A stretch of 64,000 bases of DNA. Source: Lentzea aerocolonigenes. GTDB taxonomy: Bacteria; Actinomycetota; Actinomycetes; Mycobacteriales; Pseudonocardiaceae. The position numbers were made by a program, and so were the translations under genes. Of this stretch, positions 6,592 through 26,912 are shown piece after piece. The stretch covers positions 744,001 to 808,000 of the forward strand of contig NZ_BBOJ01000001.1 of assembly GCF_000974445.1 (NCBI RefSeq), given 5' to 3'. Every line of letters begins with the position of its first letter. The first letter of the stretch is position 1. Under the pieces are notes generated by a model, which had not been told where the DNA came from, searched no databases, and saw only the letters and a program-made list of their open reading frames with translations.

Positions 6592-6612
6592 GCCTTCAAC
6601 ACCTCCTCGGCT

Positions 6613-6945: not shown

Positions 6946-7119
6946 GGCGCGTCCTTCCAACTGGTAACACCGCGTCGGTCGCATAGTGACACGTTTGTCT
7001 CGCACGACACACCCGCCGGAAGCATGTTGAGTCCCACTTGCCCCCGTAGGAGCACGTGTGTAGTCTACCGCTGACCTCAGATGATCGCCTGAGGTTTGTC
7101 ACAGTGACATGGAGGTGTG

Positions 7120-9103: not shown

Positions 9104-10300
9104 ATGGTCCGTCGTCCGTCGAAGAGCGGTCGCAGGCTGGGGATCAGGCAGCCTTCTGTACGGCGCCGCAAGAAGTCGGCCGAAAATCCACCGCGCCAAA
9201 GGCAGTGGCTTGCTGGCGTCGCTGTCCTTGTGAGCCTCGTTGCGTTGATTCCGGCGTTCTGGGACAACCTCGTACTCAGAAGCTCCGATTTGTCCATCGC
9301 CGGAATCAAAGCAACAACGAAGACCGACGTTCCCGTCACGGAACATGGTCCTATGGGCGACGCGCCTGGATCCTCGATTATCGCCTCGGCTGTGGCTATC
9401 ACGCTTAAGAATGAGGGTGAACAGCCTGCGCTAATCAAGCGAGTCCGCCTGTCGGTGGATCAGGTGTGGGCTCCTCGGGGCTGTGATGGAGCAGGGTCCA
9501 CTACCTACACGATCGCCTATGATTTCGTGCTGCCAGGTGATATCGAAAGCAGGCCACTGCCGTATGTCCTGGAGAAGGATTATCAGTTCCAGGTTGCTGG
9601 GCAAGAGATCGATGGGATGCTCATTCCCATCGGGCAGGAGCTCTTTGGTGAAGCGGGATGGCCATTGGTCGTAGCTGGCACTCTTGAGTTGATTCAGGAT
9701 GATGGCAAGTCGCTGAAGACGGAACCCTTCGTCCTGATGGATGGCCACCGAAATGACGACATCGTCAGTCTCTCGAATAATACCCGCGGCGATGATTCGT
9801 ACGAGGATCCGAGAAAGGTATGTGTCGAGAAGAATCTCGGAATGCTGAGATCGGCTCTTGAGCGGCCCGGACCCAAGTCGTCTTCGATCACTGACTTGCT
9901 CGAAAGAATCAAGCCAAGGCAGGTGATCCCGAGTCGGGATCCTGAGCCAGCCAAGCCTGGAGAGCGTGATGTGGACACCTGGGTTGCGCAGCTGGCGTCG
10001 CTCCCAGGCGCTACGCCGGAGGCCGAGGCAATCAGGCGCGCAAAGGAGATTGCGTCAAGCACCGGCTGGTCGCTCAGGGTGATTTGGAGCACATACTTCG
10101 AGTCGCTTCGCGAAGGCTATTGGGTGGTGTATTACCCAGGCAGCTTTAAGGACGGCCATGCAGCGCTTGACGCGTGTAAGCGGGCCGGAAGAACTGATCC
10201 TGAATCATGTGTCGGCCGATACCTCAGCCACCGCGAAGCCGACCGGGACTTGGTGTGCTATTTCTCGGATCCTCAAGATGCGCGACGATGCAAGCGGTAG
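9104..10300 (+). CDS. Single-TM protein with SPOR-like C-terminus
   Basis: 398 residues; the ATG at 9104 follows AGGAGGT by five bases, so the earlier in-frame TTG is not used. A basic N-terminus (KSGRRLG, RRRKKS) precedes one hydrophobic helix (about residues 42-58). A beta-rich middle follows, then a C-terminal stretch starting WVAQLASLPG and containing GYWVVYYPGSF, reminiscent of SPOR-type folds; I did not verify that family. The protein is probably anchored with the C-terminus outside. It lies between the DUF3846 gene and the restriction block; function unknown. Confidence 0.7.
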   Translation: MVRRPSKSGRRLGIRQPSVRRRKKSAENPPRQRQWLAGVAVLVSLVALIPAFWDNLVLRSSDLSIAGIKATTKTDVPVTEHGPMGDAPGSSIIASAVAITLKNEGEQPALIKRVRLSVDQVWAPRGCDGAGSTTYTIAYDFVLPGDIESRPLPYVLEKDYQFQVAGQEIDGMLIPIGQELFGEAGWPLVVAGTLELIQDDGKSLKTEPFVLMDGHRNDDIVSLSNNTRGDDSYEDPRKVCVEKNLGMLRSALERPGPKSSSITDLLERIKPRQVIPSRDPEPAKPGERDVDTWVAQLASLPGATPEAEAIRRAKEIASSTGWSLRVIWSTYFESLREGYWVVYYPGSFKDGHAALDACKRAGRTDPESCVGRYLSHREADRDLVCYFSDPQDARRCKR

Positions 10301-10364: not shown

Positions 10365-10799
10365 CTAGCGTCCCACTGTTCCTCGTCGTTCGCGCACAAC
10401 CTGAGCTATCGCCTTGGCAGCTTCCGCAGGGTCCTCGTGTTCCCACACGCGTACGCTCAGCCAGCCCACCTCCGCCAGGCGTTGATTCGTGTCTCGGTCG
10501 CGTGCCTGGTTAGTGCGTACCTTCTCCGCCCAGAAGCTCGCGTTCGTTGCAGCCACGGTGTGGTGCTCGGCGCACCCATGCCAGAAGCACCCGTCCAGGA
10601 ACACAGCGACCTTCGCTGAGGTGAAGACCATGTCCGCAGTCCGCCGCAGCTGGGGAAGTGGTCGAGCTGAAACGCGGTAGCGAAGTCCTAGGGCGTGGAC
10701 CGCCGAGCGAAGCGCGAGTTCGGGCTTGGTGTCGCGGGCCTTGTTGCCCTGCATGCTCGCCCGCGTGGCGGCTGAAGACGCCCATGAGGTGCTGGACAC
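10365..10799 (-). CDS. vsr: Very-short-patch mismatch endonuclease
   Basis: 144 residues from a GTG start. The sequence matches Vsr: RDTKPELALR (23-31), the catalytic aspartate in TADMVF (D56), then KVAVFLDGCFWHGC (63-76) with the zinc-binding Cys and His residues. Vsr nicks 5' of T in T:G mismatches made when 5-methylcytosine deaminates, so it belongs with the divergent cytosine methyltransferase that starts 181 bases away. Length is normal for the family. Confidence 0.95.
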   Translation of the reverse strand: MSSTSWASSAATRASMQGNKARDTKPELALRSAVHALGLRYRVSARPLPQLRRTADMVFTSAKVAVFLDGCFWHGCAEHHTVAATNASFWAEKVRTNQARDRDTNQRLAEVGWLSVRVWEHEDPAEAAKAIAQVVRERRGTVGR

Positions 10800-10980
10800 A
10801 CTGCCAGCCTAGATGAGTCGGCGTAGCTTCGACGGTGCACACGTTGCGCTGTAAGGAAAGCCTGTCGAGCTGCCTCTATGAGGGTGGTTCGCACTCGATC
10901 GTGGACTGAGCTGTTGAGTCTCGAGATTTTTGCCGATCTCTTGTACTGTCAGCACGATCTTTGGTGAGAGGAGAACAACC

Positions 10981-12180
10981 GTGTCGGGCTCGTTCCGCGT
11001 GGCAGGCTTGTTCGCGGGCATCGGTGGTATCGAGCTCGGTTTCCACGAGGTCCTCGGGGACAAGTTGGACACGGTCCTGCTCTGCGAGAACTGGGAGCCC
11101 GCGCAGAAGGTGCTCAAGGCTCGCTTCCCAGACGTCGAGCTCCACCCTGATGTGCAGGAACTGCGCGATCTTCCGGACAATCTTGACGTCCTCGCAGCGG
11201 GCTTTCCATGCACTGACCTGTCGCAGGCTGGACGCACGGCAGGCATCCGCGGTGCTCAGTCGGGCCTGGTCGCGCACGTCTTCGAGATGCTTGCGGTCAT
11301 CAAGAACCGCGGTCGCCGGCTGCCGTGGGTGCTCATTGAGAACGTCCCGAACATGCTCACGTTGGACCGAGGCGAGGCGATGGCCTACCTCGTGCAGGAG
11401 CTCGAAGCGTTGGGCTACCGCTGGGCGTATCGCGTCGTGGACTCGCGGTTCACGGGTGTGCCGCAGCGGCGTCGGCGAGTGATCATGGTGGCGTCCGCTA
11501 CGGAGGACCCCCGAGCGGTCCTCTTCGCGGATGAAGCTGGCACGCTCGACGAGGACAAGCTCGCTTCTAACGCGTTCGGCTTCTACTGGACTGAGGGAAA
11601 CTCTGGTGTCGGCTGGGCGCGCGATGCGATCCCGACCCTCAAAGGTGGCTCTGGCGTAGGGATTCCTTCTGCTCCCGCAGTGTGGCTGCCCGAGTGGTCG
11701 ACCGAACCGACAATCGTCGTACCCACCATCGAGGATGCTGAGGTCCTGCAAGGCTTCAAGCGTGGTTGGACTGACCCAGCCATCGAGGAACGCCGCAATG
11801 GTCCACGTTGGAAGCTTGTAGGCAATGCGGTCACTGTGGGTGTGTCCAAATGGGTTGCTGAGCGCCTGTTGAAGCCGGGTTCTTACGACGGTCTCGATGA
11901 CACGTTGTTCCAGCGCAAGGCCGGCTGGCCCACCGCTGCCTGGGGCGAGAACGGCAAGGTGCACCGCGTGTTCATCAGCGAGTTCCCGCGTCAGGAGAAG
12001 TACACGAGTCTTCTGAAGGTGCTGACTGTCGATGAGTGCCCGCCGCTCTCATACCGGGCTGCCAACGGGTTCTGGACACGCCTTCAGAAGACGAACCTCG
12101 GGCAGTACCCCGGCTTCCGGCGGGCGCTTGAGGACTATGTAGACGCTGCTAGTCCTGAGAAGCAGCGCATCACTGTCTGA
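10981..12180 (+). CDS. dcm: DNA (cytosine-5) methyltransferase
   Basis: 399 residues from GTG with GAGAGGAGAA upstream. Motif I is LFAGIGGIELGF, motif IV is GFPCTDLSQ with catalytic Cys77, motif VI is ENVPNML, motif VIII is QRRRRV, and motif X is GNAVTVGVSKW near the C-terminal third. About 80 further residues follow. It methylates cytosine C5 in a specific DNA site to protect against a partner endonuclease. It is divergent from vsr and upstream of ATPase, HNH and GIY-YIG genes on the same strand. The likely cognate restriction enzyme is the GIY-YIG protein, but the ATPase/HNH pair lies between them. Confidence 0.93.
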   Translation: MSGSFRVAGLFAGIGGIELGFHEVLGDKLDTVLLCENWEPAQKVLKARFPDVELHPDVQELRDLPDNLDVLAAGFPCTDLSQAGRTAGIRGAQSGLVAHVFEMLAVIKNRGRRLPWVLIENVPNMLTLDRGEAMAYLVQELEALGYRWAYRVVDSRFTGVPQRRRRVIMVASATEDPRAVLFADEAGTLDEDKLASNAFGFYWTEGNSGVGWARDAIPTLKGGSGVGIPSAPAVWLPEWSTEPTIVVPTIEDAEVLQGFKRGWTDPAIEERRNGPRWKLVGNAVTVGVSKWVAERLLKPGSYDGLDDTLFQRKAGWPTAAWGENGKVHRVFISEFPRQEKYTSLLKVLTVDECPPLSYRAANGFWTRLQKTNLGQYPGFRRALEDYVDAASPEKQRITV

Positions 12181-12277
12181 CAGGGTGTTCCGGAGTCGAG
12201 CGTGTAGACGCGCGCACATCGGGTAATGAAGTGCCGGTTTGCGCCCAAAGATCACTTGTTGGGGTTACCCTCGCTAG

Positions 12278-14335
12278 GTGACCGGATCGATCAGCGCGCA
12301 GCAGCTGGAGATGGTGAGCAACCTCCTAGCCGAGGTGCCTGATCACTCTAAGCGGAGCACCACCAAGTACCAGCAGCTTGAGTTGTATCTGGCCCGTCTG
12401 CTCCGCGTCCCGACAGACTCGATATATGCCGCCTACGTGTCTAAAGCTGGAAACACCACGGTGAGGTTTGATCAGTCGCCACGACCTCGCCAGGCGAAGA
12501 TCCTCGTTGCCGTAGTCGATCCTCCTCATCCAGAGCATCCAATGCGAGCGGTGGAAGCGCTAGAACGGTACTGCGCAGAGAAGCGACCGGACGCCGAAGT
12601 ACTCGTCTTCACCATGCAGAAGGAACGAGGCTGGTACCCGTACGCGGCGATCTTCGTCTCATCGGAGGTGGCTCCCGCTCTGCAGCCAATCATCGATGCG
12701 AGTGAGAGTATCCGGGTTCTCCCGCAAGCCCAGATGCTCGGAAGCATCAGCGCCAAGCGCTCAAGCGCTTCTCTGCGCTTCGTTGTTATGGATCGCCAGA
12801 AAGAAGTACGTGGGCTTCCTTATCCAATTGTCGTGTTGCAGCAAGAAGACTGGCCTGACGGAAAAGATCACTATCAGACCCTGTTCTCCGCCTACTTCTA
12901 CAGCGACTCTCGAAACCGTGAGCTTCTGGGTGAGGTAAAAATCCTTGAAAAAGGCCAGGCGGGAGGACGCACGCAGATGCCGCAGGGGTTGTTCAAGCGG
13001 CTTAACGAAAACTACTGCTCTCTCGGGCAAAGTAGAACGTATTATGAAGCACTTCGCTCTTTACCTCAATCGATATACCAAAAGATCCTCCGCGGCCTTC
13101 GAGATATGGTGTACGACGAGGATGTACGCGAAGATTTCGGAAGGGATCCTGGTTTTAGCAAGTCGCTGATCCGAACCGGCAAAGCTGCTCTGGCCCTTGA
13201 GGAAGCCGGCGAGCTATTTAAGGATGATGTAGCAAGGCCACGCCGAGGACGGAAGTTCACTTTCGATACGCAGGTTGGAGGTGAACGGTTTGAGATCGAC
13301 TTCGCGTTCGACCAGTCGCCGAGCTTGCCGGACAGGATTAACGCCGTTATCGGATATAACGGAACCGGGAAGACGCAGCTGCTCGCAAACATTGCGCTCG
13401 TAGCTACATCTGACTCTGAACAGCGCAGAGAAGCCAATCGCCAGTATGGGAAGATTCTCAACACGGGAAAGGTGCTCTTCAGCTCCGTTATAGCTATCTC
13501 GTACAGCGCCTTCGATACGTTCGCTCTCCCCGACCAGTTTTGGGAGTCGGAAGAGGAACGGCGAAGTGCAGCGAAGAGGTTGCGCGACAAGGGTGAGGTC
13601 AATGGGTATGCTTACTGCGGACTACGCAAGCGCGCGCCCGGACAGAAGAGTCGCTCGCCGCGCGGACTGAAAAGTATTGATGAGGTGAGCGATGAGTTCG
13701 CTCGTGCCCTCGACGTGACCTTTGCGTCTCCGGAGAAGCGGTCGATTCTGCGGGACGCCATGCGAACGATACGTAAAGAACCTTCTTTTGCACGGGTCGT
13801 CGGCGATCCCGAGCAGGCGGAAACCCGTGAGGCGCTACTCAGGCAGTTCAGCACATCAAGCACAGGCCACAAGATCGTCCTGAACATGTTGGTGCAGATT
13901 ATCGCACACAGTGATCCAAGATCACTCATCCTAATTGATGAGCCGGAGTCTCATCTCCATCCGTCGCTGCTGGCGGCATTGATGCGAGCCTTGAATGTCA
14001 TTTTGCGCAGCTCGCTGAACTCGTATGCGATCGTCGCTACGCACTCTCCTGTCGTGCTACAGGAGATTCCGCGGAACTATGTGAGGATCTTGCAGCGTTT
14101 TGGGCAGACAACCAGGGTGGTTAGGCCAAAGATTGAAACATTCGGTGAGAACGTTGGGCATCTGACGACAAACGTCTTCCATCTCGACAGCACCGAAACA
14201 GACTTCCATGCCACCCTCAGGGAGCTGGCCGCCACGAAGACCATCGAAGAGATCGAAGACTTGTTCGACGATGAGATGAGTGCGCAGGCTCAAGCGTATG
14301 TTCTCGGATTCATGCGATCGCTGGGGCGCCTGTGA
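12278..14335 (+). CDS. Septu-like (PtuA-type) AAA/ABC ATPase
   Basis: 685 residues from GTG. A TACCCT box six bases before the start suggests a leaderless transcript. Walker A is GYNGTGKT at 359-366; Walker B is ILIDEPESHLHP with D554-E555, followed by an ATHSPVVLQEIP switch region, as in OLD/RecN-type ATPases of defence systems. It overlaps the HNH gene by four bases (GTGA), the usual arrangement of PtuA with PtuB. About 350 residues precede Walker A, more than I expect for classical PtuA, so it may be a distinct subtype. Its place between a methyltransferase and a GIY-YIG nuclease is unusual. Confidence 0.8.
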   Translation: MTGSISAQQLEMVSNLLAEVPDHSKRSTTKYQQLELYLARLLRVPTDSIYAAYVSKAGNTTVRFDQSPRPRQAKILVAVVDPPHPEHPMRAVEALERYCAEKRPDAEVLVFTMQKERGWYPYAAIFVSSEVAPALQPIIDASESIRVLPQAQMLGSISAKRSSASLRFVVMDRQKEVRGLPYPIVVLQQEDWPDGKDHYQTLFSAYFYSDSRNRELLGEVKILEKGQAGGRTQMPQGLFKRLNENYCSLGQSRTYYEALRSLPQSIYQKILRGLRDMVYDEDVREDFGRDPGFSKSLIRTGKAALALEEAGELFKDDVARPRRGRKFTFDTQVGGERFEIDFAFDQSPSLPDRINAVIGYNGTGKTQLLANIALVATSDSEQRREANRQYGKILNTGKVLFSSVIAISYSAFDTFALPDQFWESEEERRSAAKRLRDKGEVNGYAYCGLRKRAPGQKSRSPRGLKSIDEVSDEFARALDVTFASPEKRSILRDAMRTIRKEPSFARVVGDPEQAETREALLRQFSTSSTGHKIVLNMLVQIIAHSDPRSLILIDEPESHLHPSLLAALMRALNVILRSSLNSYAIVATHSPVVLQEIPRNYVRILQRFGQTTRVVRPKIETFGENVGHLTTNVFHLDSTETDFHATLRELAATKTIEEIEDLFDDEMSAQAQAYVLGFMRSLGRL

Positions 14336-15177
14336 TCCGGAAAGTGCGCAAGCCGCACAGAGATGTTGTAGACGATTTCGACCGCGCCTGTGAGGTCCGT
14401 CGCCGGAACAGCGTGAAGGCGATGCTTCAAGAACTCCGTGAGGAGATCCTTGAAGCCTATGCGGCATACGATGCTGCCGAAGGTGTGCCGCCTAGCGTAG
14501 CTCCCATCGGTTTCGACAAACCTCAAGCAGAAGCCCTTCGTGGAAACTATCCGCATACGTACGAAGGCGGTGTTCTGGCTGAACTTCGTTCTAAAGCTTT
14601 TGCTGCGATCGAGGATGATCTATGCCCAATGTGCGGGGTCGGCTACGTCAGGGCTCTCGATCACTACCTTCCCAAGGAGAAGTACCCAGAGTTCAGCGTT
14701 CTCGCCTTGAACCTTGTGCCAACCTGCACGAGGTGCAATGAGAACAAGTTGAGCCTGGTGGGTGGTGCCGGCGGAAGGTTCTTCCACGCGTACTACGAAG
14801 AGGTGCCAGAAACACCAAGTATCTTACTGGCGGATATCGAGGTGGCCTACGGCAGCGCAATCGTTTCGTTCAAAGTGAATGATGAGTTGCCTGAGGTTAT
14901 CTACAAAAATGCCGCGTATCACTTTGAAAGGCTGCGCCTAAGTGAGACGTATGTGGGACCCGCTGTGCAGGAGCTGGTCGAGCGAGTTCCGTTTTTTGAA
15001 TCGTGGTATGAAGGGGGAGGGTCGGAAAAGGTGGCGCGTAAAGCGCACCGCCAGGCGGAGCACCTCCGCAACGAGTTCGGTCCGCAGTTCTGGAAGGCGG
15101 CCCTTTACGACGCCGTTGAGAAAAATCACGATTTCTGCGATGGCGGATTTAGCTTGCTTGCAAGTCGAAACTGCTGA
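14332..15177 (+). CDS. PtuB-like HNH nuclease
   Basis: 281 residues from a GTG that overlaps the ATPase stop. The HNH/zinc core is intact: CPMC (98-101), RALDHYLPKEKYPEF with D110-H111, ALNLVPTC (C132) and CTRCNENK. LDHYLPK followed by NLVP and a Cx2CN is the characteristic PtuB signature. In Septu systems the nuclease is held by the ATPase and cleaves nucleic acid on phage infection. The GIY-YIG gene begins six bases after the stop, so all three are probably co-transcribed. Confidence 0.85.
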   Translation: MIRKVRKPHRDVVDDFDRACEVRRRNSVKAMLQELREEILEAYAAYDAAEGVPPSVAPIGFDKPQAEALRGNYPHTYEGGVLAELRSKAFAAIEDDLCPMCGVGYVRALDHYLPKEKYPEFSVLALNLVPTCTRCNENKLSLVGGAGGRFFHAYYEEVPETPSILLADIEVAYGSAIVSFKVNDELPEVIYKNAAYHFERLRLSETYVGPAVQELVERVPFFESWYEGGGSEKVARKAHRQAEHLRNEFGPQFWKAALYDAVEKNHDFCDGGFSLLASRNC

Positions 15178-15183
15178 GCCGGT

Positions 15184-15666
15184 ATGGACCCGGCGCTTAG
15201 CTTGCTAGCGAACTGGTCGCCGTGGTTGCCCTTCGCGGACGCTGCCGCTGAAGCACCTCTGTCTCCGGGTGTCTACGTCGTCCGCTCTGGCAGTGATGGT
15301 CCGCTTGTATACGTGGGCATGGCGGGTGAGCGTCGAGGCAGAGGGCTCCGCGGACGCTTAGCCGTGTACGCGAGCGGCAAGGGCGCGGTGAGTGGGCTCG
15401 GTGAAGCCGCCTTCGACCAGGCGCTCATGACGCCCACGTGGGTGCGTGACCGCCTGGCGGCCCTGGAAGCTGGACACCCAAGTACTGCGAAAGGCTGGGC
15501 TCGCGCCGCACTCGAGGCGGCAGGTCTCTACGTGTGCTGGGCGTGTACCCCTGATCGAGCAGCTGCCGAAGCATTGGAGCGGACCGTCCTCAAGCGACTA
15601 TCAGCAGTGCCGCTGTGGAACGTCCGGCGGCCGATCCAAGATAAAGCCTGTGGGGAGCGGCGCTAG
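15184..15666 (+). CDS. GIY-YIG endonuclease
   Basis: 160 residues. GVY at 29-31 and YVG at 43-45 form the GIY-YIG element, followed by RGRGLRGRL with the conserved Arg and by a late acidic site (AAEALERTVLK) that can supply the metal-binding Glu. WNVRRP near the end resembles GIY-YIG restriction enzymes of the Eco29kI kind. It starts six bases after the HNH gene, so translation is probably coupled. It is the best candidate for the restriction half of the cytosine methyltransferase; a role as a third Septu subunit is the alternative. Its stop codon overlaps that of a convergent small gene through CTAG. Confidence 0.8.
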   Translation: MDPALSLLANWSPWLPFADAAAEAPLSPGVYVVRSGSDGPLVYVGMAGERRGRGLRGRLAVYASGKGAVSGLGEAAFDQALMTPTWVRDRLAALEAGHPSTAKGWARAALEAAGLYVCWACTPDRAAAEALERTVLKRLSAVPLWNVRRPIQDKACGERR

Positions 15667-16329: not shown

Positions 16330-16594
16330 GTGTGCATTGTCTGGCTCAGACTGTGGGCCCGCGGGGTCAGGTGGGTAGGTTCACCTGAAGTTGCGGCTTG
16401 CTGCCTGTGTCTTGGTGTCTGCTACCCCGCAGTCGCTAACCGCGGCGAACTGGTCTTGTCGTGCTGAGTGTGGCCTCTCTGCCTTCGGGTGCCGGGTGCT
16501 TGCTGCAAAAGCCTGACCTACGGCATACACACTTGGCGGATGTTCTTCCTAGGCGGAGCGACTATAAAAGTGCCTGGTTGAGCCAACTGTCTTG

Positions 16595-17401
16595 ATGGCC
16601 GATCCAACGGAGGCACCTGTGACCGAACCTGCTCCGACTGGCGTAAGCCTCGCCCTCCACTTTGGTAACGTTGTCACGCTCAGCGAGATGACACAAGTAC
16701 TGCAGGACATCCACGATGGATATGAAGCGTGCCTTCAAGCGCTTGAACCGCCGAAGGACATGCCAGTCGGCGAACCAAGAGTCATAATTCGCACAGGCTC
16801 CCTCTTCGTGGAACTGACAGCGGCGATCGAATCTGGGGCGTGGGTGGCAGGCGCCGTTGTGTTGATGAAGGCAGTACTTACCAATTCGCAGGAAGTCATC
16901 AACGTCTTCAACCTCCCGGTAGAGATCGTCGACAAAGTGCAAGCCCGATGGCATGACTTCCGTAAGAACCGGAGGCTCCGGAGAATCGAGCGCGAGCAGC
17001 TTAGGATCGACGATGCTGCTCGTGAGGCAGTCGGCGACAAGCCTGCATCTATCGGAGACGCGCCAACGCGGCAACAGTCCACCGATAACACGAGAACTCC
17101 CTCACCTCCGCCACGTGGCGATCACGGCGCCATCCCTGAATTTAAAGCGACTCTCAACGGAGCTATCGGGTTCGTTGGAACGATGGAAGCGCAAATGGTG
17201 GGGAGACTTGAGCGGGTGGATGAACTCGATCAGGTGCGAGATCGCATCGTGGCGACCCTAGGAACTAGCCATGATGTGCTGCCTGAACTGCTACGACTGA
17301 TCGAGGCAGCAAATGGACTCATAGCTAGTGCCTCACGCGAAGCCGCAGGCATCTTGGGGCATGTTATCGGACGTCTCGTGGAGGAGGGGCGCAACGTTTA
17401 A
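16595..17401 (+). CDS. Unknown soluble protein next to small-gene family
   Basis: 268 residues from the ATG at 16595; a TATAAA box at about 16562 lies upstream, but no clear ribosome site is seen. The N-terminal half has alternating strands and helices (VIIRTGSLFVELTAAIESGAW), the middle is charged (RRLRRIEREQLR), a Pro/Ser/Thr linker lies near 160-185, and a C-terminal helical region ends in GRLVEEGRNV. I do not recognise the family. Its stop codon overlaps that of the convergent small gene 17398-17493 through TTAA, the same geometry as the GIY-YIG/small-gene pair. Confidence 0.6.
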   Translation: MADPTEAPVTEPAPTGVSLALHFGNVVTLSEMTQVLQDIHDGYEACLQALEPPKDMPVGEPRVIIRTGSLFVELTAAIESGAWVAGAVVLMKAVLTNSQEVINVFNLPVEIVDKVQARWHDFRKNRRLRRIEREQLRIDDAAREAVGDKPASIGDAPTRQQSTDNTRTPSPPPRGDHGAIPEFKATLNGAIGFVGTMEAQMVGRLERVDELDQVRDRIVATLGTSHDVLPELLRLIEAANGLIASASREAAGILGHVIGRLVEEGRNV

Positions 17402-17507: not shown

Positions 17508-17765
17508 AATATTGAACTGGAAGACATAAAGCAACTGCTCCGCGCGGAGATCTCAGGGGCAATGCAGCACATAGATAGGCGCATCGACGACGTAGTAGAA
17601 GATCTCGCACAGGTGAAGAGCGGGATGGCAACTAAGGCTGACCTTGAAGAAGTTCAAGAAGCCATCGCAGATATTGTCACCACCGCCTTGGGGGCGGTCG
17701 ACTCCACGAAGCAAGTCGACGACCACGAACGCCGCATCACCCGGCTTGAACATCACGCCGCTTGA
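17505..17765 (+). CDS. 86-residue coiled-coil protein
   Basis: A mostly helical, charged protein with heptad-like spacing of hydrophobics (IKQLLRAEISGAMQHI, VVEDLAQVKSGMATK, RRITRLEHHAA), typical of small coiled-coil proteins in phages and elements. It is probably leaderless. Its end overlaps the convergent integrase gene by 13 bases. Function unknown. Confidence 0.6.
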   Translation: MNIELEDIKQLLRAEISGAMQHIDRRIDDVVEDLAQVKSGMATKADLEEVQEAIADIVTTALGAVDSTKQVDDHERRITRLEHHAA

Positions 17766-19162
17766 ATCGCCTGCTCGTAAGTGGATCTGACGGCTAAGTT
17801 GACGGCTACCAGTCCTAACTTCCAACGCCTCGTAGCTCGTTCAGCAACCCAATTTACTTCGGTCAGACGGAGTTGCAAGGGGGCTTCGATGGAGCTCTTA
17901 AGCAGGGTGTCCTGGGTTCGATTCCCAGATGGCCCTCCAGAGATGATCGATGTAATCCGCGCAACGAAGTCAGCGGCTGACGGCCAACTTTGACGGCTAC
18001 GCGCGTCACCAACAAGACCACGCAACCTAGGTGCGTGGTCTTTTGGTTTTGCCAGCAGTGCCGCTCCGATGCGCGATATAGCCTCTTCCTTATCTTTCTG
18101 CCTTGCGTGGGTGTAGATGTTCATTGTCGTGATCACGCTGGCGTGCCCGAGGATCTTCTGAGCCACCTTCGGCTGGACCCCAAGCTCTGCTAGGAGCGTG
18201 CTCGTGGTGTGGCGTTGATCGTGGAAACGGATAACCCGAACCCCAGCCTTGTTGCAAAGGCGCCACCACGCTCGCACGAAGTTACGGGGTTCTATAGGTG
18301 TGCCGACCGCGGTGATGAACGCGAGGTCAGAACCTCGACTCACCGACTGCCGGTAAGCGTTGTATTCAAGGAGTGCCGCGCGAAGTTCGTCAAGCAACAG
18401 CAGATCCCGGCGCCCAGAGTTCGTCTTGACCGGGCCCACCACTAGCTCACGGCCTACTCGTTGCAGCTGCTGGCGTACCTGAATAGTGCCACTGGCAAAG
18501 TCGATATCACTCCAGCGCAGCCCCAGTACCTCGCCCCGTCTCATACTGTAGAGAAGTGGCATTAAGAACGCAGGATACAGAACATGCTGCCGTGCGGCGG
18601 CAAGGAACTGTCTGGCCTCCTCTAGTGACCACGGTTCAACCTCCTCCTTCTCCTCATCCTTAAGCTCGACGAGTCGGGCCACATTGCGCATGAGAAGGTC
18701 TTCGCGCATGGCTCTGGTGAGAGCGGCGCTCAGTGTGGTGCGGACGATTTGAGCTTTACGCACAGAGCTGCCCGCGGCTACCATCGCATTGAGGGATTTT
18801 TGAACGTTTGCAACGGTAAGCTTGGTGAGTGAAAAGTGGCCAAGCAGAGGCTTCAGGTAGAGTCTGACCGAAATCTCGTACGACTCGTACGTTTTGGGCC
18901 TCTTCGTCGGCTTGACGTGTGCCTCAAGCCAGTAATCCAGGTAGGCACCCAGCTTCCATGCCTTGTCGGGTGCCGGAATTCCTTGTTGCTGTTTCGCCTT
19001 CAGCTCAACTAGCTTCGCATGCGCTTCCCTGCGAGTTGATCCGTAAACGCGTACTCGCTTGCGAACGCCGCTTGCGCTGGCTATCCAAAGTGAAGCTTCC
19101 CAACGCTTGTCAGTCTTGCGCTGGTAGATTGACCCCTCACCGTTTGTGCCACGGCGAGCCAT
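17753..19162 (-). CDS. int: Tyrosine-type site-specific integrase
   Basis: 469 residues from the ATG at 19162, which overlaps the excisionase stop by one base. An N-terminal AP2-like and SAM-like DNA-binding region (GEGSIYQRKTDKRWEA onward) precedes the catalytic domain with R in SMRRGEVLGLRW, HDQRHT, LGHAS and the nucleophile tyrosine in NIYTH. The C-terminus (GGPSGNRTQDTLLKSS) is translated from the tRNA-Lys att core, as often seen for tRNA-targeting integrases. It is expected to recombine att sites in tRNA-Lys. As a large serine integrase ends the element, this system may be dormant in the present insertion. Confidence 0.93.
   Translation of the reverse strand: MARRGTNGEGSIYQRKTDKRWEASLWIASASGVRKRVRVYGSTRREAHAKLVELKAKQQQGIPAPDKAWKLGAYLDYWLEAHVKPTKRPKTYESYEISVRLYLKPLLGHFSLTKLTVANVQKSLNAMVAAGSSVRKAQIVRTTLSAALTRAMREDLLMRNVARLVELKDEEKEEVEPWSLEEARQFLAAARQHVLYPAFLMPLLYSMRRGEVLGLRWSDIDFASGTIQVRQQLQRVGRELVVGPVKTNSGRRDLLLLDELRAALLEYNAYRQSVSRGSDLAFITAVGTPIEPRNFVRAWWRLCNKAGVRVIRFHDQRHTTSTLLAELGVQPKVAQKILGHASVITTMNIYTHARQKDKEEAISRIGAALLAKPKDHAPRLRGLVGDARSRQSWPSAADFVARITSIISGGPSGNRTQDTLLKSSIEAPLQLRLTEVNWVAERATRRWKLGLVAVNLAVRSTYEQAIQAA
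17895..17939 (+). other. Attachment core: 3' end of tRNA-Lys(CTT)
   Basis: These 45 bases read as the 3' half of a tRNA: anticodon loop CTCTTAA, stem GCAGG, variable loop GTGTC, T-arm CTGGG-TTCGATT-CCCAG, acceptor ATGGCCC, T, CCA. No matching 5' half precedes it (GGAG replaces the expected CCTGC), so it is not a tRNA gene but the att core of the adjacent tyrosine integrase, whose last codons run through it. No intact tRNA-Lys is present in the window. Confidence 0.85.
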
Positions 19163-19419
19163 CACTCAAGGTCCTCGCTAAGTTTTCGTCGGATGTAGCG
19201 AGAGATGCTGGAGATGGGGATGCGGCGAATGCGCCCGATCTTGATTGTCTCAATCGCGCGTGAGCGGATGAGGTCATACAGCGTCCATCGGCTGATTCGG
19301 AGCACTTGGCAAGCTTCAAGCACGGTAAGTAGCTCCGGGCTCAACTTGTCTCGCAGATGCGGTTCCTCGCCAGGATGGTTGCAGTCTTCTTGCTTGGGTT
19401 GTTCTATCGACAATGCCAT
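19162..19419 (-). CDS. xis: Excisionase / HTH_17 DNA-binding protein
   Basis: 85 residues from the ATG at 19419, chosen because AAAGGA lies eight bases before it; an ATG six bases earlier is too close. The winged-helix motif LTVLEACQVLRISRWTLYDL then IKIGRIRRIPISSI is that of MerR-like excisionases. It is directly upstream of int and sets integration versus excision direction. TATAAA at about 19437-19442 is a good -10 box. Confidence 0.85.
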   Translation of the reverse strand: MALSIEQPKQEDCNHPGEEPHLRDKLSPELLTVLEACQVLRISRWTLYDLIRSRAIETIKIGRIRRIPISSISRYIRRKLSEDLE

Positions 19420-19478
19420 TATCATGTCCTTTCTATTTTATAGCTTTATGCACGTTTCGTGAACAGCTTGGGTGTCGC

Positions 19479-20330
19479 CTATGGAGGTGCACGGCCACTC
19501 AGGTAGTCGGCGGTGTCTTCGGCAGGTGGCGAGCTAAGAAGGGCGGGGCCGTCTTCGGCCAGCGCGACGGTGAAGAGTCCGGAGGCTTCAACGGCCAGCC
19601 GGCCGATCGTGTGCTCGATGCGCTCCTTGCGGTACTCGTCGGGCACGAGCCACACCACCAGCGGGAAGACGCCTCGACGCTGCTGTTCAATCCCGCTTTG
19701 CCAGTAGGAGATGAACCGGAGGCACTTGCGTTCGATCGTCGGCAGGCTCTCGGTGGCGAGGTCGACCTCAACAAAGGCGCTGCGCTCGAACTGCTTGAAG
19801 CCAAGGTTCACGTAGGCGTCGGGCTTCAAGATGGTCAGCTCGCCGCCACTACCGCTGAAGTGCCGCCAGCAACCGGGTTCTCCCTCGAACGCTTGCAGCT
19901 CAACAAGACCGTCGCGTTCAAGCTCACGCAGCCGCACGTAGAGCTCGGCCACCGCGAGCATGTGGTCTTGGAAGTAAGGCTTCGTCTCCCACACCCGTCG
20001 CCGACGGCCACCCGTTGGCCCGCCGACCTCAAGAACGGCTTGGCCAAGCGCAGAGAGCCCGTAGACGAAGCCCGATGAACCAGCTCGAACACCGCCGATG
20101 ATGCGGGACAGCCGCACTACGAGGCCAAGTTCTTGGAGACGCTTCAAGAGGTACTGCGTCCGACGCAGACGAGAGCGCGGCGTGCCCTCGTGTAGATGAA
20201 GCCGTTGAACCTGTGCCGTCGTCAGTAGGCGGAGCAGGTGAAGCGAACGCAGCACAGCCAAGGGGAGGGTCTCAAGCTCGACGCGCAGGCGGGCCGCTCG
20301 CCCACGTGGAAGTCGCGCCGTCATAGCCAA
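19479..20330 (-). CDS. Replication-relaxation family protein
   Basis: 283 residues, AGGAGC seven bases before ATG. The N-terminal winged helix (LRLLTTAQVQRLHL, RRTQYLLKRLQELGLV) and the FVEVDLATESLPTIERKCLRF segment fit the replication-relaxation family, found in actinobacterial plasmids and integrative elements next to transfer ATPases. The D/E-x-K-like arrangement (EVDLATE) suggests a nuclease-like fold, probably acting at the origin. It follows the coupling ATPase by 112 bases on the same strand. Confidence 0.8.
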   Translation of the reverse strand: MAMTARLPRGRAARLRVELETLPLAVLRSLHLLRLLTTAQVQRLHLHEGTPRSRLRRTQYLLKRLQELGLVVRLSRIIGGVRAGSSGFVYGLSALGQAVLEVGGPTGGRRRRVWETKPYFQDHMLAVAELYVRLRELERDGLVELQAFEGEPGCWRHFSGSGGELTILKPDAYVNLGFKQFERSAFVEVDLATESLPTIERKCLRFISYWQSGIEQQRRGVFPLVVWLVPDEYRKERIEHTIGRLAVEASGLFTVALAEDGPALLSSPPAEDTADYLSGRAPP

Positions 20331-20442
20331 GCTCCTGGCGGCAAGACACTCGGTGGCACTTCCCGGCGAAGTACAGAGATGAGAGAACGAACCAATGGCA
20401 CGCGACGCGTCAGACGAGACGAATCAAGTTGTGAGCCAGGCA

Positions 20443-22656
20443 TTACGCTGCTCTCCGCGTGATGCCGATGGGGCCTTCCGGGTCGGAAGTTGTTCCTTGC
20501 CAACGGGTAGCCAGCGCCTGATCGAGGTCATCACCGTCTACGCCGTAGCGTTCGAGACTGATTCGGCGGAGTTCGTCGGTGCTGGAGGTAGCAGGGCCGA
20601 GAGGGCGAGTGCGTACCGTGAAGGCTTCGCTCATCGCGTTGTCCACCGTCAGGCGGCAGCAGGCCTCAAAGCGGCCCAGGCGTTCCAAGAGCTTGGCGGA
20701 GACGCCAGAGCCGAGGGCGCCGGCCAGTGGGCGGATGTCGTCGGGGCTCGGGCGGAAAACCATCCGGGAGCGCGCGTTGGCGAAGAAGGCCGCTTTCAGG
20801 CTCGGGGTGAGTTGGCCGAGGTGCTGGTGGGCCGCTGTGATCGAAACCCCGAGGGCGCGAGCTTGGGCCAGCATGTCGCCTACATCAACGGGGAGCTTCA
20901 GGTAGTCCTGAACCTCGTCGATCACCACCATCACGGAGTGACGCTCATCGGGCGGCAACGAGGCTCGGCGCAGGATGGCCTGCCAGAGCTGCGTTAGTAG
21001 AAGCGCACCGATCAATGAAGCCGTGTCGGCGCCGATGAGGCCGGAGTTCAAGTTCACCAGGACGATGCGGCGGTGGGTGAACAGTTCTTCTAAGTGAAAC
21101 CGCGGCGCGGCTTGACCGAGCAGGCGGCGAACGGCCGTGCGGCTGAGAAACGTCCGGGTCTTGTTGAGGACGGGGCCGATCACCTGGGCGCGCTCGGCGC
21201 TCGAAAGTCCGTCGTACCAAGCGAAGAACGGTGCCAGTACGAGGGGGTCGGTGACTTCGCTGAGGATGCGTCGTCTGAAGCCGGAGTTGGTGAGGAGCAC
21301 AGGTAGATCGGCCAGCGTCCCTTGAGGACTGCGAGCCAGTGCGATGAGCGCGTGCAGAAGAACATCGCTACTTCGCGGGCCGATGCTGTTGCCGAAGACC
21401 TGGCGGAACAGCTGCAAGACCTCGTCGGCCTGGCGCTCGGCTTCCTCTACCGTGCCGGCGAGCGGGTTGATGCCAACAACCTGTTGGCCACCAGGTTGGA
21501 GGAGAACGACGTCTTCTCGGCGAGCTGGTGGCACGTGAGCGAGCACATCGTTCACCAGATCGCCGCGGGGCTCGATGAGCAGCACGCTTCTTCCAGCGTA
21601 CATGTCGGCCTTGATGAACGAAGCAAGCTGGGTGGACTTCCCTGCACCGGTAGTCCCTGTGACGTGAAGGTGGTGCAGGGCGGAGGAAACCGGCAGTGAA
21701 ACGAGCTGCCCATCGTCAGCGGGGTGAACACTCTGGCCCAGCACCCGAAGATCAGGCGACCTCACCGCGCGGGTTGGCGGGATGAGCAGCTGGTGTGGAG
21801 CTGGGTTGGTGGTGTGCCCAACATCCGTCACACCGTCGACGGGCCAGCCAAGGAGCGTGGCCAGCTCGGTGGCGTTCAGGATGCCGAACCACCGCTGGTA
21901 GGCGGGGAGGTTGATCAGTCCGCTGCCACCACGCCGAGAAGCGGCGGTGCTCTTCACCTCGGAGTAACTCGCACTCGCGAGGGCTTCAGCCTGCGCCAGC
22001 ATGTGCAGGACTGTCCGTGTGCGTTCGAGGTGATGGGTCCTGGCACCAACCCGTCCTCGAACCGCGAACAGAGGTTCGGCTGTCTTCCTGCGCCAGTGCT
22101 GTTGTTCGCCGGGATGAGCTTGTGCGGGGTTCGCGAAGCCCAGTAGCTGCGACCAGCTTGCGTGCTTCGGCGGTGTGCGGCGCTGCTCGGCAGGGCCGAT
22201 GACCCACTGAACTACGGCTGACTCACCGTCCTTTAAGAGCCTCAGTACTTCGAGCAGGCCGGCGGTGACGCTAGAAGCCATGTCACTTCGCAGCGGCTCG
22301 GACACCCCTGTGATGCGAAGGTCTTTGGTGAGCAAGGGCTGTGGGCGTTGCGGCTCGCTGAGCGGAGTGAGAATAAGTTCTGGGAGTTGCGCCCGTAGCT
22401 GCTCGGGCAAGTGCGTGAGACGGCAATCCAGGCCGATCAACCACGCTAGGGTGCCGCCGTGCGACCAAAGCTCGAACGTGACCACAGGGGTGCGTCCGGT
22501 AATGCCGACGCGTGGGCGCGTGGCGAGCGGGCGGATGAGTCGGGTGATGGCGGCGATGTCGAGGGCAACAGGGAAGAACAGCTTGAACCAGCGGAAGCTG
22601 GTGCTATGAGAGTTTGGTTCGTTACACGGGTTTGGGGTTGACGGCAGTGTCGCCAT
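20443..22656 (-). CDS. VirD4/TraG-like conjugative coupling ATPase
   Basis: 737 residues, ATG with AAGGAGGAG four bases upstream. Walker A is TGTTGAGKST near residue 335; Walker B is VMVVIDEVQDY near 590; a HQHLGQL segment follows, typical of FtsK/HerA-TraG ATPases (arginine-finger/sensor region). The N-terminal 330 residues have a weak hydrophobic stretch near 25-45 but no clear double TM. It probably pumps DNA during conjugative transfer of the element. No relaxase or mating-channel genes are visible, so they are either to the left of the window or absent. Confidence 0.85.
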   Translation of the reverse strand: MATLPSTPNPCNEPNSHSTSFRWFKLFFPVALDIAAITRLIRPLATRPRVGITGRTPVVTFELWSHGGTLAWLIGLDCRLTHLPEQLRAQLPELILTPLSEPQRPQPLLTKDLRITGVSEPLRSDMASSVTAGLLEVLRLLKDGESAVVQWVIGPAEQRRTPPKHASWSQLLGFANPAQAHPGEQQHWRRKTAEPLFAVRGRVGARTHHLERTRTVLHMLAQAEALASASYSEVKSTAASRRGGSGLINLPAYQRWFGILNATELATLLGWPVDGVTDVGHTTNPAPHQLLIPPTRAVRSPDLRVLGQSVHPADDGQLVSLPVSSALHHLHVTGTTGAGKSTQLASFIKADMYAGRSVLLIEPRGDLVNDVLAHVPPARREDVVLLQPGGQQVVGINPLAGTVEEAERQADEVLQLFRQVFGNSIGPRSSDVLLHALIALARSPQGTLADLPVLLTNSGFRRRILSEVTDPLVLAPFFAWYDGLSSAERAQVIGPVLNKTRTFLSRTAVRRLLGQAAPRFHLEELFTHRRIVLVNLNSGLIGADTASLIGALLLTQLWQAILRRASLPPDERHSVMVVIDEVQDYLKLPVDVGDMLAQARALGVSITAAHQHLGQLTPSLKAAFFANARSRMVFRPSPDDIRPLAGALGSGVSAKLLERLGRFEACCRLTVDNAMSEAFTVRTRPLGPATSSTDELRRISLERYGVDGDDLDQALATRWQGTTSDPEGPIGITRRAA

Positions 22657-22711
22657 GACTCCTCCTTCATGATGTAATAAGGTTTCACCTCCGGTGGCAA
22701 GCTTGGATCGA

Positions 22712-24703: not shown

Positions 24704-24706
24704 AAT

Positions 24707-24736: not shown

Positions 24737-24745
24737 GTGGAAGCC

Positions 24746-25174: not shown

Positions 25175-25354
25175 ATGGGTGTTATCATGGGGAAAGTTCA
25201 AAAGAAGACAAACTATCGTGCAGATTTGCGCAAGCGGGTCGAAGCATCCACAAAGAAAAGCGGCGTCCCGCTAAAAGTGCAGGACGCCGCCACGTTGAAC
25301 AGGCTTCGCTTGCTGGTTAGTGAAGCCAGACGATCTCAACAAGCTCAGGGTTGA
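25175..25354 (+). CDS. Small basic protein beside serine integrase
   Basis: 59 residues from ATG 25175 (GAAAGAAG upstream) or 55 from ATG 25187. Rich in Lys and Arg (KVQKKTNYRADLRKRVEAS, then LNRLRLLVSEARRSQ), likely helical. It overlaps the convergent serine integrase 3' end by 38 bases. Large serine integrases need a small directionality factor for excision, often encoded nearby, and this is the only unassigned small gene beside the integrase; the link is a guess. Confidence 0.5.
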   Translation: MGVIMGKVQKKTNYRADLRKRVEASTKKSGVPLKVQDAATLNRLRLLVSEARRSQQAQG

Positions 25355-26912
25355 ACCGCCAGCCGTTCTTGTCTGGCCACATCCTTCCGCCGGGGTGTCC
25401 AGGGTGGATGATGACCTTCTCGACGACGAGCCTGATCACGCTTGCACGCCACTCGATGCTCGCGGTGCTCCACAGCTCGCGCAGGCCGCCGTCCGTGGGA
25501 ACCGCCAGGTTCTTCGCCGCGACGTTCAGCAGCTGCTTCTTCTCTGACTCGGCGGCACGCTGCTTGTCCTTGATGATCTGCAGCATGACGCGGTAGTCAT
25601 CCTTCTCGTGCTCACCGGCTGCGTACTCCGCCGCGAGCTGCTCCCGCCGCTCCTTGAGCTCGGCGAGTTCTTGCATCACCGCGTCCATGCGTCCCTGGTT
25701 GTCCGCAGGAGCGAGAGCTCGGGCCACCTCCGGCGAGTCGAAGCGGTACAGCACCTGCTTAGTGACGAAGTGCTCGACGGCATCCGCAATGCGGAAGACG
25801 GTGCAGCAGCCGATCCTGCTGCCGTCCCGATCCCACTTCTTGCACGCGTAGCGCCGGATGTACCGGCCATCCTCTGTCTTGCCCTGGCCGAACATGTCGC
25901 CGCCGCAGCGTTGTCCTTGGCGCTCAGTATCAGGCCAAGTTCCGCCACACTCCATGATGCCGCTGAGCAGATAGGTGCGGCCCTTTAGGCGGCCGACATT
26001 GGACCAGTACTTGTTTCGCCCGTTGAAGATGGCGGCCATCGACTCGTACTCGGCCTTGGTGAAGATGTACGGCCACTTAGCGCGGTGGCGCTGGTTGTAG
26101 TGAACCCTCGTGCCACCCGTCTCCGGGTTGCGGAGGCAAGGGCACGTGGGTGGATGGCCGGTCGGATCAAACTGCACATAGCGTTCGTTCAGCAGCGTCC
26201 GTTTGAACGACCCGACTCGCCAGGCATGCCCCAGTGCAGTCTTGATGCCGCGCCGCTTCCAGTCCTGCAAGATCACGAACTGGCTCTCGCCAGCGAGGGT
26301 GCGACGCTTTCCCTCTTCAAGAACGACTATCTCATCGTCACGCACCTGGTACGCGTCGCAGATATCTTTGCCCGTCAAGGGGTTGTGGCTGACCACCTTG
26401 CCGTAGCCGTAACAGCGACGACCGCCGCCCACCTTGCCCTCGCAAGCGTCTTGCAGCTTCTTGCGGACAGTCAGCTCTTGGATGTCCTCGGCAACCCCTG
26501 CATCGAGTGCTGCCTGGATGCGGTCCATCTTGCGGTTGGCCGACACCTGAAGGTCGAGGGCTTGGCCGCGAACGTAGTAGTACTGAGCCTGGTTCTTGCG
26601 GGCGAGCCTGATCTGACGCTCGTTCTCGGATGGGTCCCGCGTCAGGCGGCTCTTTGTGTAGGCGAGGACGATCTTTACGGGGCCAGCTTGGACGCGGTCG
26701 AGCATCTCCTCGTAGTCAGGACGCTCTTCATCGCTGTTGGTACTGGCCGAGATGTCGTTGTCGCAGAAGAAGTGAACGATGCTGAGACCCAGCTGGTCGG
26801 CCAGCTTGGCGATGTCTTCGCGCTGCCGCTCGACACCCAGTTCCTTGCCCTCACGGTCATCACTGATCCGCAGATAACCGTACGCTTCCCTACCCTGCAA
26901 TGAGTCGTGCAT
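25317..26912 (-). CDS. Large serine integrase
   Basis: 531 residues. The N-terminal resolvase domain has the nucleophile serine in YLRIS (S17) and the conserved arginines in TKSRLTRDPSE. The recombinase domain and a zinc-ribbon domain follow (LLSGIMECGG, then RCGG, then RYACKK, then GCC), and a coiled-coil region lies near 400-450 (LAELKERREQLAAEY). Such enzymes integrate phages and elements at attB sites without host factors. It is the last gene before the chromosome, transcribed away from the junction. AAAGGA lies about 11 bases before the ATG and a TATAAT -10 box lies at 26939-26944. Confidence 0.95.
   Translation of the reverse strand: MHDSLQGREAYGYLRISDDREGKELGVERQREDIAKLADQLGLSIVHFFCDNDISASTNSDEERPDYEEMLDRVQAGPVKIVLAYTKSRLTRDPSENERQIRLARKNQAQYYYVRGQALDLQVSANRKMDRIQAALDAGVAEDIQELTVRKKLQDACEGKVGGGRRCYGYGKVVSHNPLTGKDICDAYQVRDDEIVVLEEGKRRTLAGESQFVILQDWKRRGIKTALGHAWRVGSFKRTLLNERYVQFDPTGHPPTCPCLRNPETGGTRVHYNQRHRAKWPYIFTKAEYESMAAIFNGRNKYWSNVGRLKGRTYLLSGIMECGGTWPDTERQGQRCGGDMFGQGKTEDGRYIRRYACKKWDRDGSRIGCCTVFRIADAVEHFVTKQVLYRFDSPEVARALAPADNQGRMDAVMQELAELKERREQLAAEYAAGEHEKDDYRVMLQIIKDKQRAAESEKKQLLNVAAKNLAVPTDGGLRELWSTASIEWRASVIRLVVEKVIIHPGHPGGRMWPDKNGWRFNPELVEIVWLH

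What the first reader, a model, noticed from the sequence alone, without database searches (positions are those of the whole stretch)
10365..15666. Septu-like ATPase/HNH pair inserted between a cytosine methyltransferase and a GIY-YIG nuclease
Vsr, cytosine-5 methyltransferase, PtuA-like ATPase, PtuB-like HNH nuclease and GIY-YIG nuclease are consecutive, the last three coupled by overlaps or a 6-base gap. Either Septu has been inserted into a restriction-modification operon, or the five form one combined system. The ATPase has a longer N-terminal region (about 350 residues before Walker A) than I expect for PtuA.
Basis: partly seen in the sequence, partly recalled or inferred. Interest (0 to 1): 0.65.

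Follow-up and report, generated by a model that had tools for sequence, protein, structure and literature searches.

The report
Septu-like pair beside orphaned restriction methyltransferase
A two-gene anti-virus unit related to the known Septu system sits right behind a DNA-marking enzyme whose usual partner, a DNA-cutting enzyme, is missing here, and two other bacteria hold a similar pairing, so the neighbours may work together but most likely are separate defence modules packed side by side.

Summary
The five genes are real and consecutive; Vsr is divergent. The ATPase/HNH pair belongs to PADLOC candidate family PDC-M01, which is Septu-like (ATPase matches retron PtuA, Z 17.2). The 358 residues before Walker A include a separate ~165-residue N-terminal domain with no Pfam or PDB sequence relative, found in one four-member clade (support 100/99).

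The MTase is nested in a clade whose other three members keep a PD-(D/E)XK-like endonuclease (RE2) right behind them; one is a second copy in this same genome. The window has no RE2, so its MTase/Vsr lost their partner. The GIY-YIG-like gene occurs without these partners in 8 of 8 relatives. No C5 MTase was detected in 65 of 67 other pair loci.

The two exceptions (Dactylosporangium; genome G313) put the pair immediately beside a C5 MTase with an endonuclease-like gene, in different orientations, so an R-M/Septu partnership like PrrC with type I R-M is not excluded.

Best reading: a modular defence stack on a mobile element: autonomous Septu-like unit, orphan MTase/Vsr perhaps shielding against the resident RE2 specificity, and a hitchhiking GIY-YIG gene. 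New variant; moderate interest.

The parts
10365..10799 (-). Vsr mismatch endonuclease, divergent
   Evidence: Pfam Vsr 4e-18, TIGR00632 124.7 bits vs cut-off 97.85; 72-75% to Vsr of the RE2-bearing units L029/L121
10981..12180 (+). C5-cytosine DNA methyltransferase, orphaned (usual partner RE2 absent)
   Evidence: Pfam DNA_methylase 5e-39, PADLOC MTase_II 423 bits, 70% to own-genome copy C18 and to G017; PCT, ENV, QRRRR, GNAV motifs intact
12266..12271 (+). TACCCT, leaderless-type -10 exactly 6 nt before the ATPase GTG
   Evidence: TANNNT at -12..-7 also in L041 and L012, 3 of 3 readable of 4 members of the clade; the generic sigma-70 scan finds nothing here
12278..14335 (+). PDC-M01A / PtuA-like ATPase, 685 aa
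   Evidence: PADLOC PDC-M01A 8e-130; AF2 pLDDT 83; residues 309-685 match retron-Eco7 PtuA, Z 17.2 over 301 aa
12278..12772 (+). N-terminal extra domain (residues 1-165) of the ATPase
   Evidence: similarity seen only in window, L041, L042, L012; monophyletic 100/99; structured in AF2; no Pfam or PDB sequence relative
13352..13375 (+). Walker A GYNGTGKT, residues 359-366
   Evidence: sequence; G359, N361, G364, K365 invariant in 29 of 29
14332..15177 (+). PDC-M01B / PtuB-like HNH nuclease, 281 aa
   Evidence: PADLOC PDC-M01B 2e-47; C98, C101, D110, H111, N127, C132, C135, N136, K139 invariant in 11 of 11
15184..15666 (+). GIY-YIG-like nuclease, 160 aa
   Evidence: motif conservation in an alignment of 7, family profile hits UvrC GIY-YIG domains weakly
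17753..19165 (-). tyrosine integrase of the surrounding mobile element
   Evidence: Pfam Phage_integrase 4e-25
19479..22656 (-). Replication-relaxation protein (19479-20330) and TrwB-like coupling ATPase (20443-22656)
   Evidence: Pfam Replic_Relax 6e-39, TrwB_AAD_bind 8e-8
25317..26912 (-). large serine recombinase beside the GC shift to the core genome
   Evidence: Pfam Resolvase 6e-17; GC per kb 0.54-0.65 before and mostly 0.66-0.74 after 27 kb

Best explanation
A modular defence stack on a mobile element, not one integrated machine. (1) ATPase+HNH is a Septu-like (PDC-M01) unit with its own leaderless promoter: a dormant ATPase/nuclease complex that is set off during phage infection and cuts tRNA or DNA, halting the cell (fold and motifs shown; promoter suggested by a conserved -10; trigger and target inferred from PtuAB). 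(2) MTase+Vsr is what remains of a type II C5 R-M that lost its RE2 endonuclease. The MTase may still methylate the same site as the complete MTase/RE2/Vsr unit elsewhere in this genome, so it can shield the element from that specificity, while Vsr mends the T:G mismatches that deaminated 5-methylcytosine leaves (inferred). (3) The GIY-YIG gene is a separately travelling small nuclease read from the pair's transcript. The pair sits where RE2 normally sits; whether it displaced RE2 or came after its loss is not shown.
For: No C5-MTase profile hit in 65 of 67 other pair loci, no GIY hit in 67 of 67. MTase tree (Dactylosporangium,(window,(own C18 copy,G017))) with supports 97/96 and 96/96; the other three all carry RE2 directly behind; no RE2 remnant in the window and RE2 only once in the genome, at C18. 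RE2 has invariant D81 and E136-x-K138 in 7 of 7. Similarity to RE2-bearing units stops near the MTase 3' end. The MTase target-recognition region is 67% identical to the C18 copy. GIY relatives show no hit to the window's MTase, Vsr, ATPase or HNH in 8 of 8. -10 at fixed spacing in 3 of 3 readable clade members. PtuA fold. Literature: PtuAB targets vary, nicked DNA or tRNA-Tyr (PMC11555353, passages; PMC13096335, section 8). MTase+Vsr of this family also occur without RE2 in Nocardia-type genomes.
Against: In L041 and L128 the pair is immediately beside a C5 MTase with an endonuclease-like gene (gaps 62 and 102 nt), which chance alone explains poorly. The window ATPase's sister (L041, support 91/92) is one of these and has the same MTase family. 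GC of MTase and pair differs, but RE2 and its own MTase in C18 differ too (0.559 vs 0.618), so composition does not prove insertion. A generic promoter scan found nothing at the ATPase. Same methylation specificity is inferred: the target-recognition region (67%) is less conserved than the N-terminal core (84%) and is 46-66% even to the 14 other family members compared. One GIY relative (L033) has an annotated site-specific DNA-methyltransferase about 2.8 kb and an HNH gene about 1.8 kb upstream.
Confidence: 0.62

Rival explanations
1. Guard model, as with PrrC and type I R-M: the Septu-like pair is a second line that watches the neighbouring C5 R-M and kills or arrests the cell when a phage blocks restriction. 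In the window the cutter has changed (RE2 lost, GIY-YIG perhaps in its place) but the pairing persists.
For: Three of 68 pair loci have a C5 MTase hit, and in all three the pair is immediately adjacent: window, L041 (MTase 67% to the window's, RE2 64% to the C18 RE2), L128 (MTase, Vsr, HNH gene hitting PADLOC REase_II at 5.5e-8). Window and L041 ATPases are sisters and their MTases fall in one clade. PrrC silenced by a linked type I R-M is an established precedent (PMC2610378 abstract).
Against: Orientation and order differ in all three loci; 65 of 67 other loci show no C5 MTase; L128 is a distant pair (31%) with a different MTase subfamily whose best PADLOC model is DruM2; the other two members of the N-extended clade have no linked MTase (L012; L042 is cut by a contig end and its genome's only family MTase is a core Nocardia-type gene). 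No baseline for defence islands was run. L128 was extended because a Vsr hit was seen first.
Confidence: 0.17
2. Five-gene combined system: the MTase marks self, and the HNH and GIY-YIG nucleases act on unmethylated DNA under control of the ATPase, whose N-terminal domain reads methylation.
For: Gene order and tight ATPase/HNH/GIY coupling; N-terminal domain specific to one clade that includes the two loci with the same MTase family.
Against: The five-gene order recurs in 0 of 67 other pair loci; GIY relatives occur without this MTase or the pair in 8 of 8; the N-terminal domain also occurs in L012 without a linked MTase.
Confidence: 0.08
3. The GIY-YIG gene is the replacement restriction endonuclease of the MTase (as in GIY-YIG type II enzymes such as Eco29kI, recalled), with the Septu-like pair inserted between them.
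For: Known GIY-YIG restriction enzymes exist (recalled); a distant GIY-like protein lies two genes from a same-family MTase in Mycolicibacterium plasmid L039; one closer relative (L033) has an annotated site-specific DNA-methyltransferase about 2.8 kb away.
Against: Relatives at 42-59% show no hit to this MTase in the DNA fetched around them, 8 of 8, which an enzyme cutting this MTase's site could hardly afford; no MTase/GIY neighbours without the ATPase/HNH were found for the close relatives.
Confidence: 0.1

Closest known systems
Septu (PtuA/PtuB)
   Same: ABC-type ATPase gene overlapping an HNH nuclease gene; PtuA fold by structure comparison (Z 16.8-17.2 to 8eea, 8ee4 and retron PtuA)
   Different: Best PADLOC family is PDC-M01, not PtuA; the alignments to PtuA begin only at model residue 309-325, leaving the N-terminal domain and about 150 residues after it uncovered; the HNH has only weak PDB similarity to PtuB (E 0.02)
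PDC-M01 (PADLOC phage-defence candidate)
   Same: Both proteins' best hits (8e-130, 2e-47); two-gene layout; PADLOC's PDC-M01 coincided with Septu calls in 41 Bacillus cereus-group cases (PMC11811056, passages)
   Different: The window profile match starts at residue 171; the N-terminal domain is outside the best model
Retron-Eco7 / type I-A retron effector PtuAB
   Same: Closest solved ATPase structures (9kjz, 9kjx, 9nnb)
   Different: No reverse transcriptase among the 20 neighbouring ORFs scanned
Type II C5 R-M with Vsr and RE2
   Same: MTase and Vsr 70-75% identical to complete units in G000 C18 and G017
   Different: RE2 is missing in the window
PrrC beside type I R-M
   Same: ATPase-based toxin next to R-M genes (PMC2610378 abstract)
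   Different: Type II C5 MTase, not type I; HNH rather than HEPN-type nuclease (recalled); no evidence of silencing by the R-M

Membership tests
Septu / PtuAB | PtuA-type ATPase with Walker A, signature, Walker B and H-loop | tested here: met
   G359-K365, S528, G530-K532, D554-E557, T588-P591 conserved; Z 17.2 to PtuA
Septu / PtuAB | adjacent HNH nuclease gene (PtuB) | tested here: met
   HNH/zinc residues invariant in 11 of 11; 4-nt overlap; direct PtuB similarity weak
Septu / PtuAB | best family call is PtuA/PtuB | tested here: not met
   PADLOC ranks PDC-M01A/B first; filed as Septu-like, not Septu
Septu / PtuAB | anti-phage activity, nuclease complex | not testable with these tools
   needs experiment
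PDC-M01 | M01A ATPase plus M01B HNH, adjacent | tested here: met
Type II R-M | C5 MTase with intact catalytic motifs | tested here: met
Type II R-M | cognate endonuclease beside the MTase | tested here: not met
   RE2 absent from the window; GIY-YIG as a substitute is unproven
GIY-YIG nuclease | GIY...YIG, R, E, N signature and fold | tested here: inconclusive
   motif positions conserved; profile to UvrC E 0.008; AF2 model unusable
R-M-linked guard (PrrC-like) | toxin gene stably linked to one R-M type | tested here: inconclusive
   C5 MTase beside the pair in 3 of 68 loci including the window, no baseline
R-M-linked guard (PrrC-like) | toxin silenced by the R-M enzyme | not testable with these tools
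   needs experiment
Type I-A retron | reverse transcriptase and msr-msd beside PtuAB | tested here: not met
   no reverse transcriptase among the 20 Pfam-scanned window ORFs between 140 and 26912; Rfam finds only one tRNA in the window

The most novel reading that the evidence does not exclude
A restriction-modification system in which the DNA-cutting enzyme has been exchanged for, or backed up by, a Septu-like suicide pair: the clade-specific N-terminal domain of the ATPase senses unmethylated sites (or failed restriction) set by the adjacent C5 MTase and licenses the HNH nuclease, so methylation gates abortive infection. L041 would be a version that keeps the cutter; L128, which lacks the N-terminal domain, would be a parallel case.
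Probability: 0.1. Interest if true: 0.78.

Novelty: new variant of a known kind. Interest (0 to 1): 0.42.

Why it matters
It shows a type II R-M caught after loss of its endonuclease, with an intact sister copy in the same genome for comparison, and a Septu-like pair in the vacated place. If the recurrent adjacency with C5 R-M is functional, it would be a type II counterpart of the PrrC guard arrangement, and the uncharacterised N-terminal domain would be the obvious sensor to test. If not, it is a clear example of how mobile elements stack and strip defence modules.

Tried and rejected
GIY-YIG as a constant third gene of the pair: GIY profile hits 1 of 68 loci, the window only. N-terminal domain as a separate upstream gene in other pairs: domain queries hit only L041, L042 and L012 outside the window; L051, L076 and L078 have frames of 641-668 aa but no similarity to it. 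N-terminal domain on plasmids: no match, but this search also missed the known member L012, so it shows nothing. Profile in 149 other genomes of the order: none. Nocardia L042 as a further case of linkage: its genome's only family MTase (54%) is a Vsr/MTase locus syntenic with L038, L085 and L087, not linked to the pair. Phages: no GIY match; viral contigs: 19 ATPase loci with no C5 MTase or GIY hit. Composition as proof of insertion: dropped, because RE2 and MTase of the intact C18 unit differ as well. Fold of the N-terminal domain: the Foldseek and VIA lists are filled by the ATPase, so its fold is untested, not new. Viral-structure search: mostly generic ATPases and ABC proteins. sigma-70 scan: 1 found, 1.4 expected. 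Print searches for Septu within R-M loci (listings only, 10 of 10, 5 of 5 and 8 of 64 papers shown) showed no title or abstract start describing this arrangement; subscription papers are not held.

ATPase tree used 55 of 60 ATPase rows (L014, L061, L069, L073, L079 left out for spurious or short frames). Some loci are cut by contig ends, and L061, L073 and L112 show no HNH hit. L128 was extended because its short version L011 showed a Vsr hit; L129 and L130 were fetched with it; L095-L099 were not extended and L118 was not counted. The MTase profile was built from sequences that include its three hits. RE2 was not scanned against NCBIfam.
Full report
Observation. The five genes are present and consecutive: Vsr 10365-10799 (minus), C5 MTase 10981-12180, ATPase 12278-14335, HNH 14332-15177, GIY-YIG-like 15184-15666. 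Vsr is divergent. The MTase and ATPase are 97 nt apart, ATPase and HNH overlap by 4 nt, and HNH and GIY are 6 nt apart. The ATPase and HNH are best matched by PADLOC PDC-M01A (8e-130) and PDC-M01B (2e-47), ahead of PtuA (2e-89). The GIY-YIG gene has no family match; the label rests on conserved motif positions and weak profile hits to UvrC GIY-YIG domains.

The long N-terminus. Walker A begins at residue 359. Many ordinary relatives begin near window residue 160, so the 358 residues are an M01-type stretch of about 190 residues plus an extra domain of about 165. The extra domain is found in the window, L041 (Dactylosporangium fulvum), L042 (Nocardia cyriacigeorgica) and L012 (Rhodococcus plasmid). 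These four ATPases form one clade in a tree of 55 of 60 collected ATPases, support 100/99, window and L041 being sisters at 91/92. AF2 models the extra domain as structured and joined by a poorly predicted linker at 152-163 (mean pLDDT 83 for the whole protein). It has no Pfam or PDB sequence relative; its fold was not searched alone. Residues 309-685 match retron-Eco7 PtuA with Z 17.2, rmsd 3.9, 301 residues, 16% identity. The ATPase family is sparse: other genomes with a match at E 1e-30 or better were 2 of 395 drawn from the phylum and 5 of 396 from the order.

What normally follows this MTase. The genome holds a second, 70% identical MTase on contig C18, with a divergent Vsr and directly followed by a 282-residue protein, RE2. 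G017, in the same genus, has the same Vsr/MTase/RE2 layout. RE2 directly follows this kind of MTase in L041, L091 and L094, and follows with a Vsr gene in between in L092 and L093; it lies near such an MTase on Rhizobium and Sinorhizobium plasmids. RE2 matches nothing in Pfam, PHROGs or PADLOC but has invariant D81 and E136-x-K138 in 7 of 7 sequences, a PD-(D/E)XK-like pattern. The MTase tree is (L041,(window,(C18,G017))) with supports 97/96 and 96/96, all but the window carrying RE2. The window has no RE2 remnant, RE2 occurs once in the genome, and similarity to RE2-bearing units ends near the MTase 3' end. So RE2 was most simply lost on the window lineage, and the pair now occupies its place. 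The target-recognition regions of window and C18 MTases are 67% identical, against 84% for the N-terminal core and 46-66% between the window and the 14 other members compared, so a shared site is plausible but unproven. Not all family members keep RE2: in L038, L085-L087 and L127 the MTase and Vsr occur with no RE2 hit.

The pair elsewhere. Thus the pair usually stands without an R-M of this kind. The two exceptions are close: in L041 the pair converges on RE2 and MTase, 62 nt from stop to stop; in L128 the order is MTase divergent from Vsr, then an HNH gene (PADLOC REase_II 5.5e-8), then after 102 nt the ATPase and HNH. L128 has a distant pair (31%) and MTase (29%), and its MTase's best PADLOC model is DruM2. 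In L041 all four genes have GC3 of 0.61-0.71, while 11 of the 13 other ORFs picked in that stretch have 0.85-0.96, so they look like one foreign block. Rough expectation: family MTases occur in 9 of 395 other phylum genomes, so chance within 16 kb is about 1e-4 per locus assuming about 5 Mb genomes (my estimate). Defence islands raise this by an unknown factor and I ran no baseline. In genomes reached through loci, the family MTase was in 2 of 2 N-extended genomes (one of them the core Nocardia-type copy) and 0 of 1 plasmid record, against 0 of 3 ordinary-pair genomes.

The GIY-YIG gene. Relatives at 42-59% occur in 6 plasmid records, G018 and G806 (a fragment); none of the 8 has a hit to the window's MTase, Vsr, ATPase or HNH in the DNA fetched. 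One of them, L033, has an annotated site-specific DNA-methyltransferase about 2.8 kb and an HNH endonuclease gene about 1.8 kb upstream. A search of phylum genomes found it in 0 of 395 besides the window's at E 1e-8. A distant relative (30%, E 3e-6) lies two genes from a same-family MTase on Mycolicibacterium plasmid L039.

Transcription. TACCCT lies exactly at -12..-7 of the ATPase GTG, the position expected of a -10 box for leaderless start (recalled rule); L041 and L012 have TAGCAT and TAACAT at the same spacing, L042 is cut off. I saw the window site first, so only the other two are tests; local frequencies of the motif there are 0.005 each. The ordinary-pair locus L128 has no such box, and a generic sigma-70 scan found nothing at the ATPase. 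The MTase's own upstream region resembles that of the C18 copy. So the pair and the MTase probably have separate promoters.

Mechanism. PtuAB complexes are infection-linked nucleases whose target varies: nicked DNA in one E. coli Septu and tRNA-Tyr in retron-Eco7 (PMC11555353, passages), tRNA-Tyr variable loop in Septu EcB88 (PMC13096335, section 8). By fold and motifs the window pair should act likewise; trigger and target are inferred. The MTase/Vsr may methylate and maintain a site shared with the C18 R-M, which would protect the mobile element that carries them: tyrosine integrase, Replic_Relax, TrwB-like ATPase and serine recombinase lie between 17.7 and 26.9 kb and GC rises from about 0.6 to 0.7 at 27 kb. 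The GIY-YIG gene is taken as a passenger.

Standing of rivals. The guard model (PrrC beside type I R-M; PMC2610378 abstract) is the main rival because of L041 and L128. A five-gene machine is unlikely because the order recurs nowhere else in 67 loci. The GIY as replacement restriction enzyme is possible but its relatives occur without this MTase. The window is a new variant: a Septu-like pair with a clade-specific N-terminal domain next to an R-M whose cutter is gone.

Noticed in passing
L128:7825-13041 (genome G313): A C5 MTase / Vsr / HNH restriction-enzyme-like locus followed by a PDC-M01 pair on the strand of Vsr and the HNH gene; a second R-M plus Septu-like neighbourhood with a different MTase subfamily.
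   Followed up: partly
L038, L085, L087, L127: Vsr and a C5 MTase of the same family without RE2 in syntenic places in Nocardia-type genomes, suggesting a long-kept solitary MTase/Vsr pair.
   Followed up: partly
window 17753-26912: Mobile-element genes: tyrosine integrase, small HTH-like ORF, Replic_Relax, TrwB-like coupling ATPase and a large serine recombinase at the GC shift; two kinds of integrase in one island.
   Followed up: partly
window 140-1786: Helicase C-terminal protein with weak Cas3-like C-terminal match; it may be cut off by the window start.
   Followed up: no
window 6070-7005: Adjacent HTH regulator and IrrE-type peptidase genes, a layout common in mobile-element control (recalled).
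   Followed up: no
window 9083-10300 and 16592-17401: Two ORFs (405 and 269 aa) on either side of the cluster with no Pfam, PADLOC, NCBIfam or PHROGs match.
   Followed up: no
L039:4824-7632 (Mycolicibacterium arabiense plasmid): A distant GIY-YIG-like gene lies two genes from a same-family C5 MTase with Vsr and an Eco57I-type methylase gene.
   Followed up: partly
L084:4630-5457 and L085:4260-5069: ORFs of 275 and 269 aa without a Pfam match directly behind same-family MTases where RE2 would be; perhaps other endonucleases.
   Followed up: no
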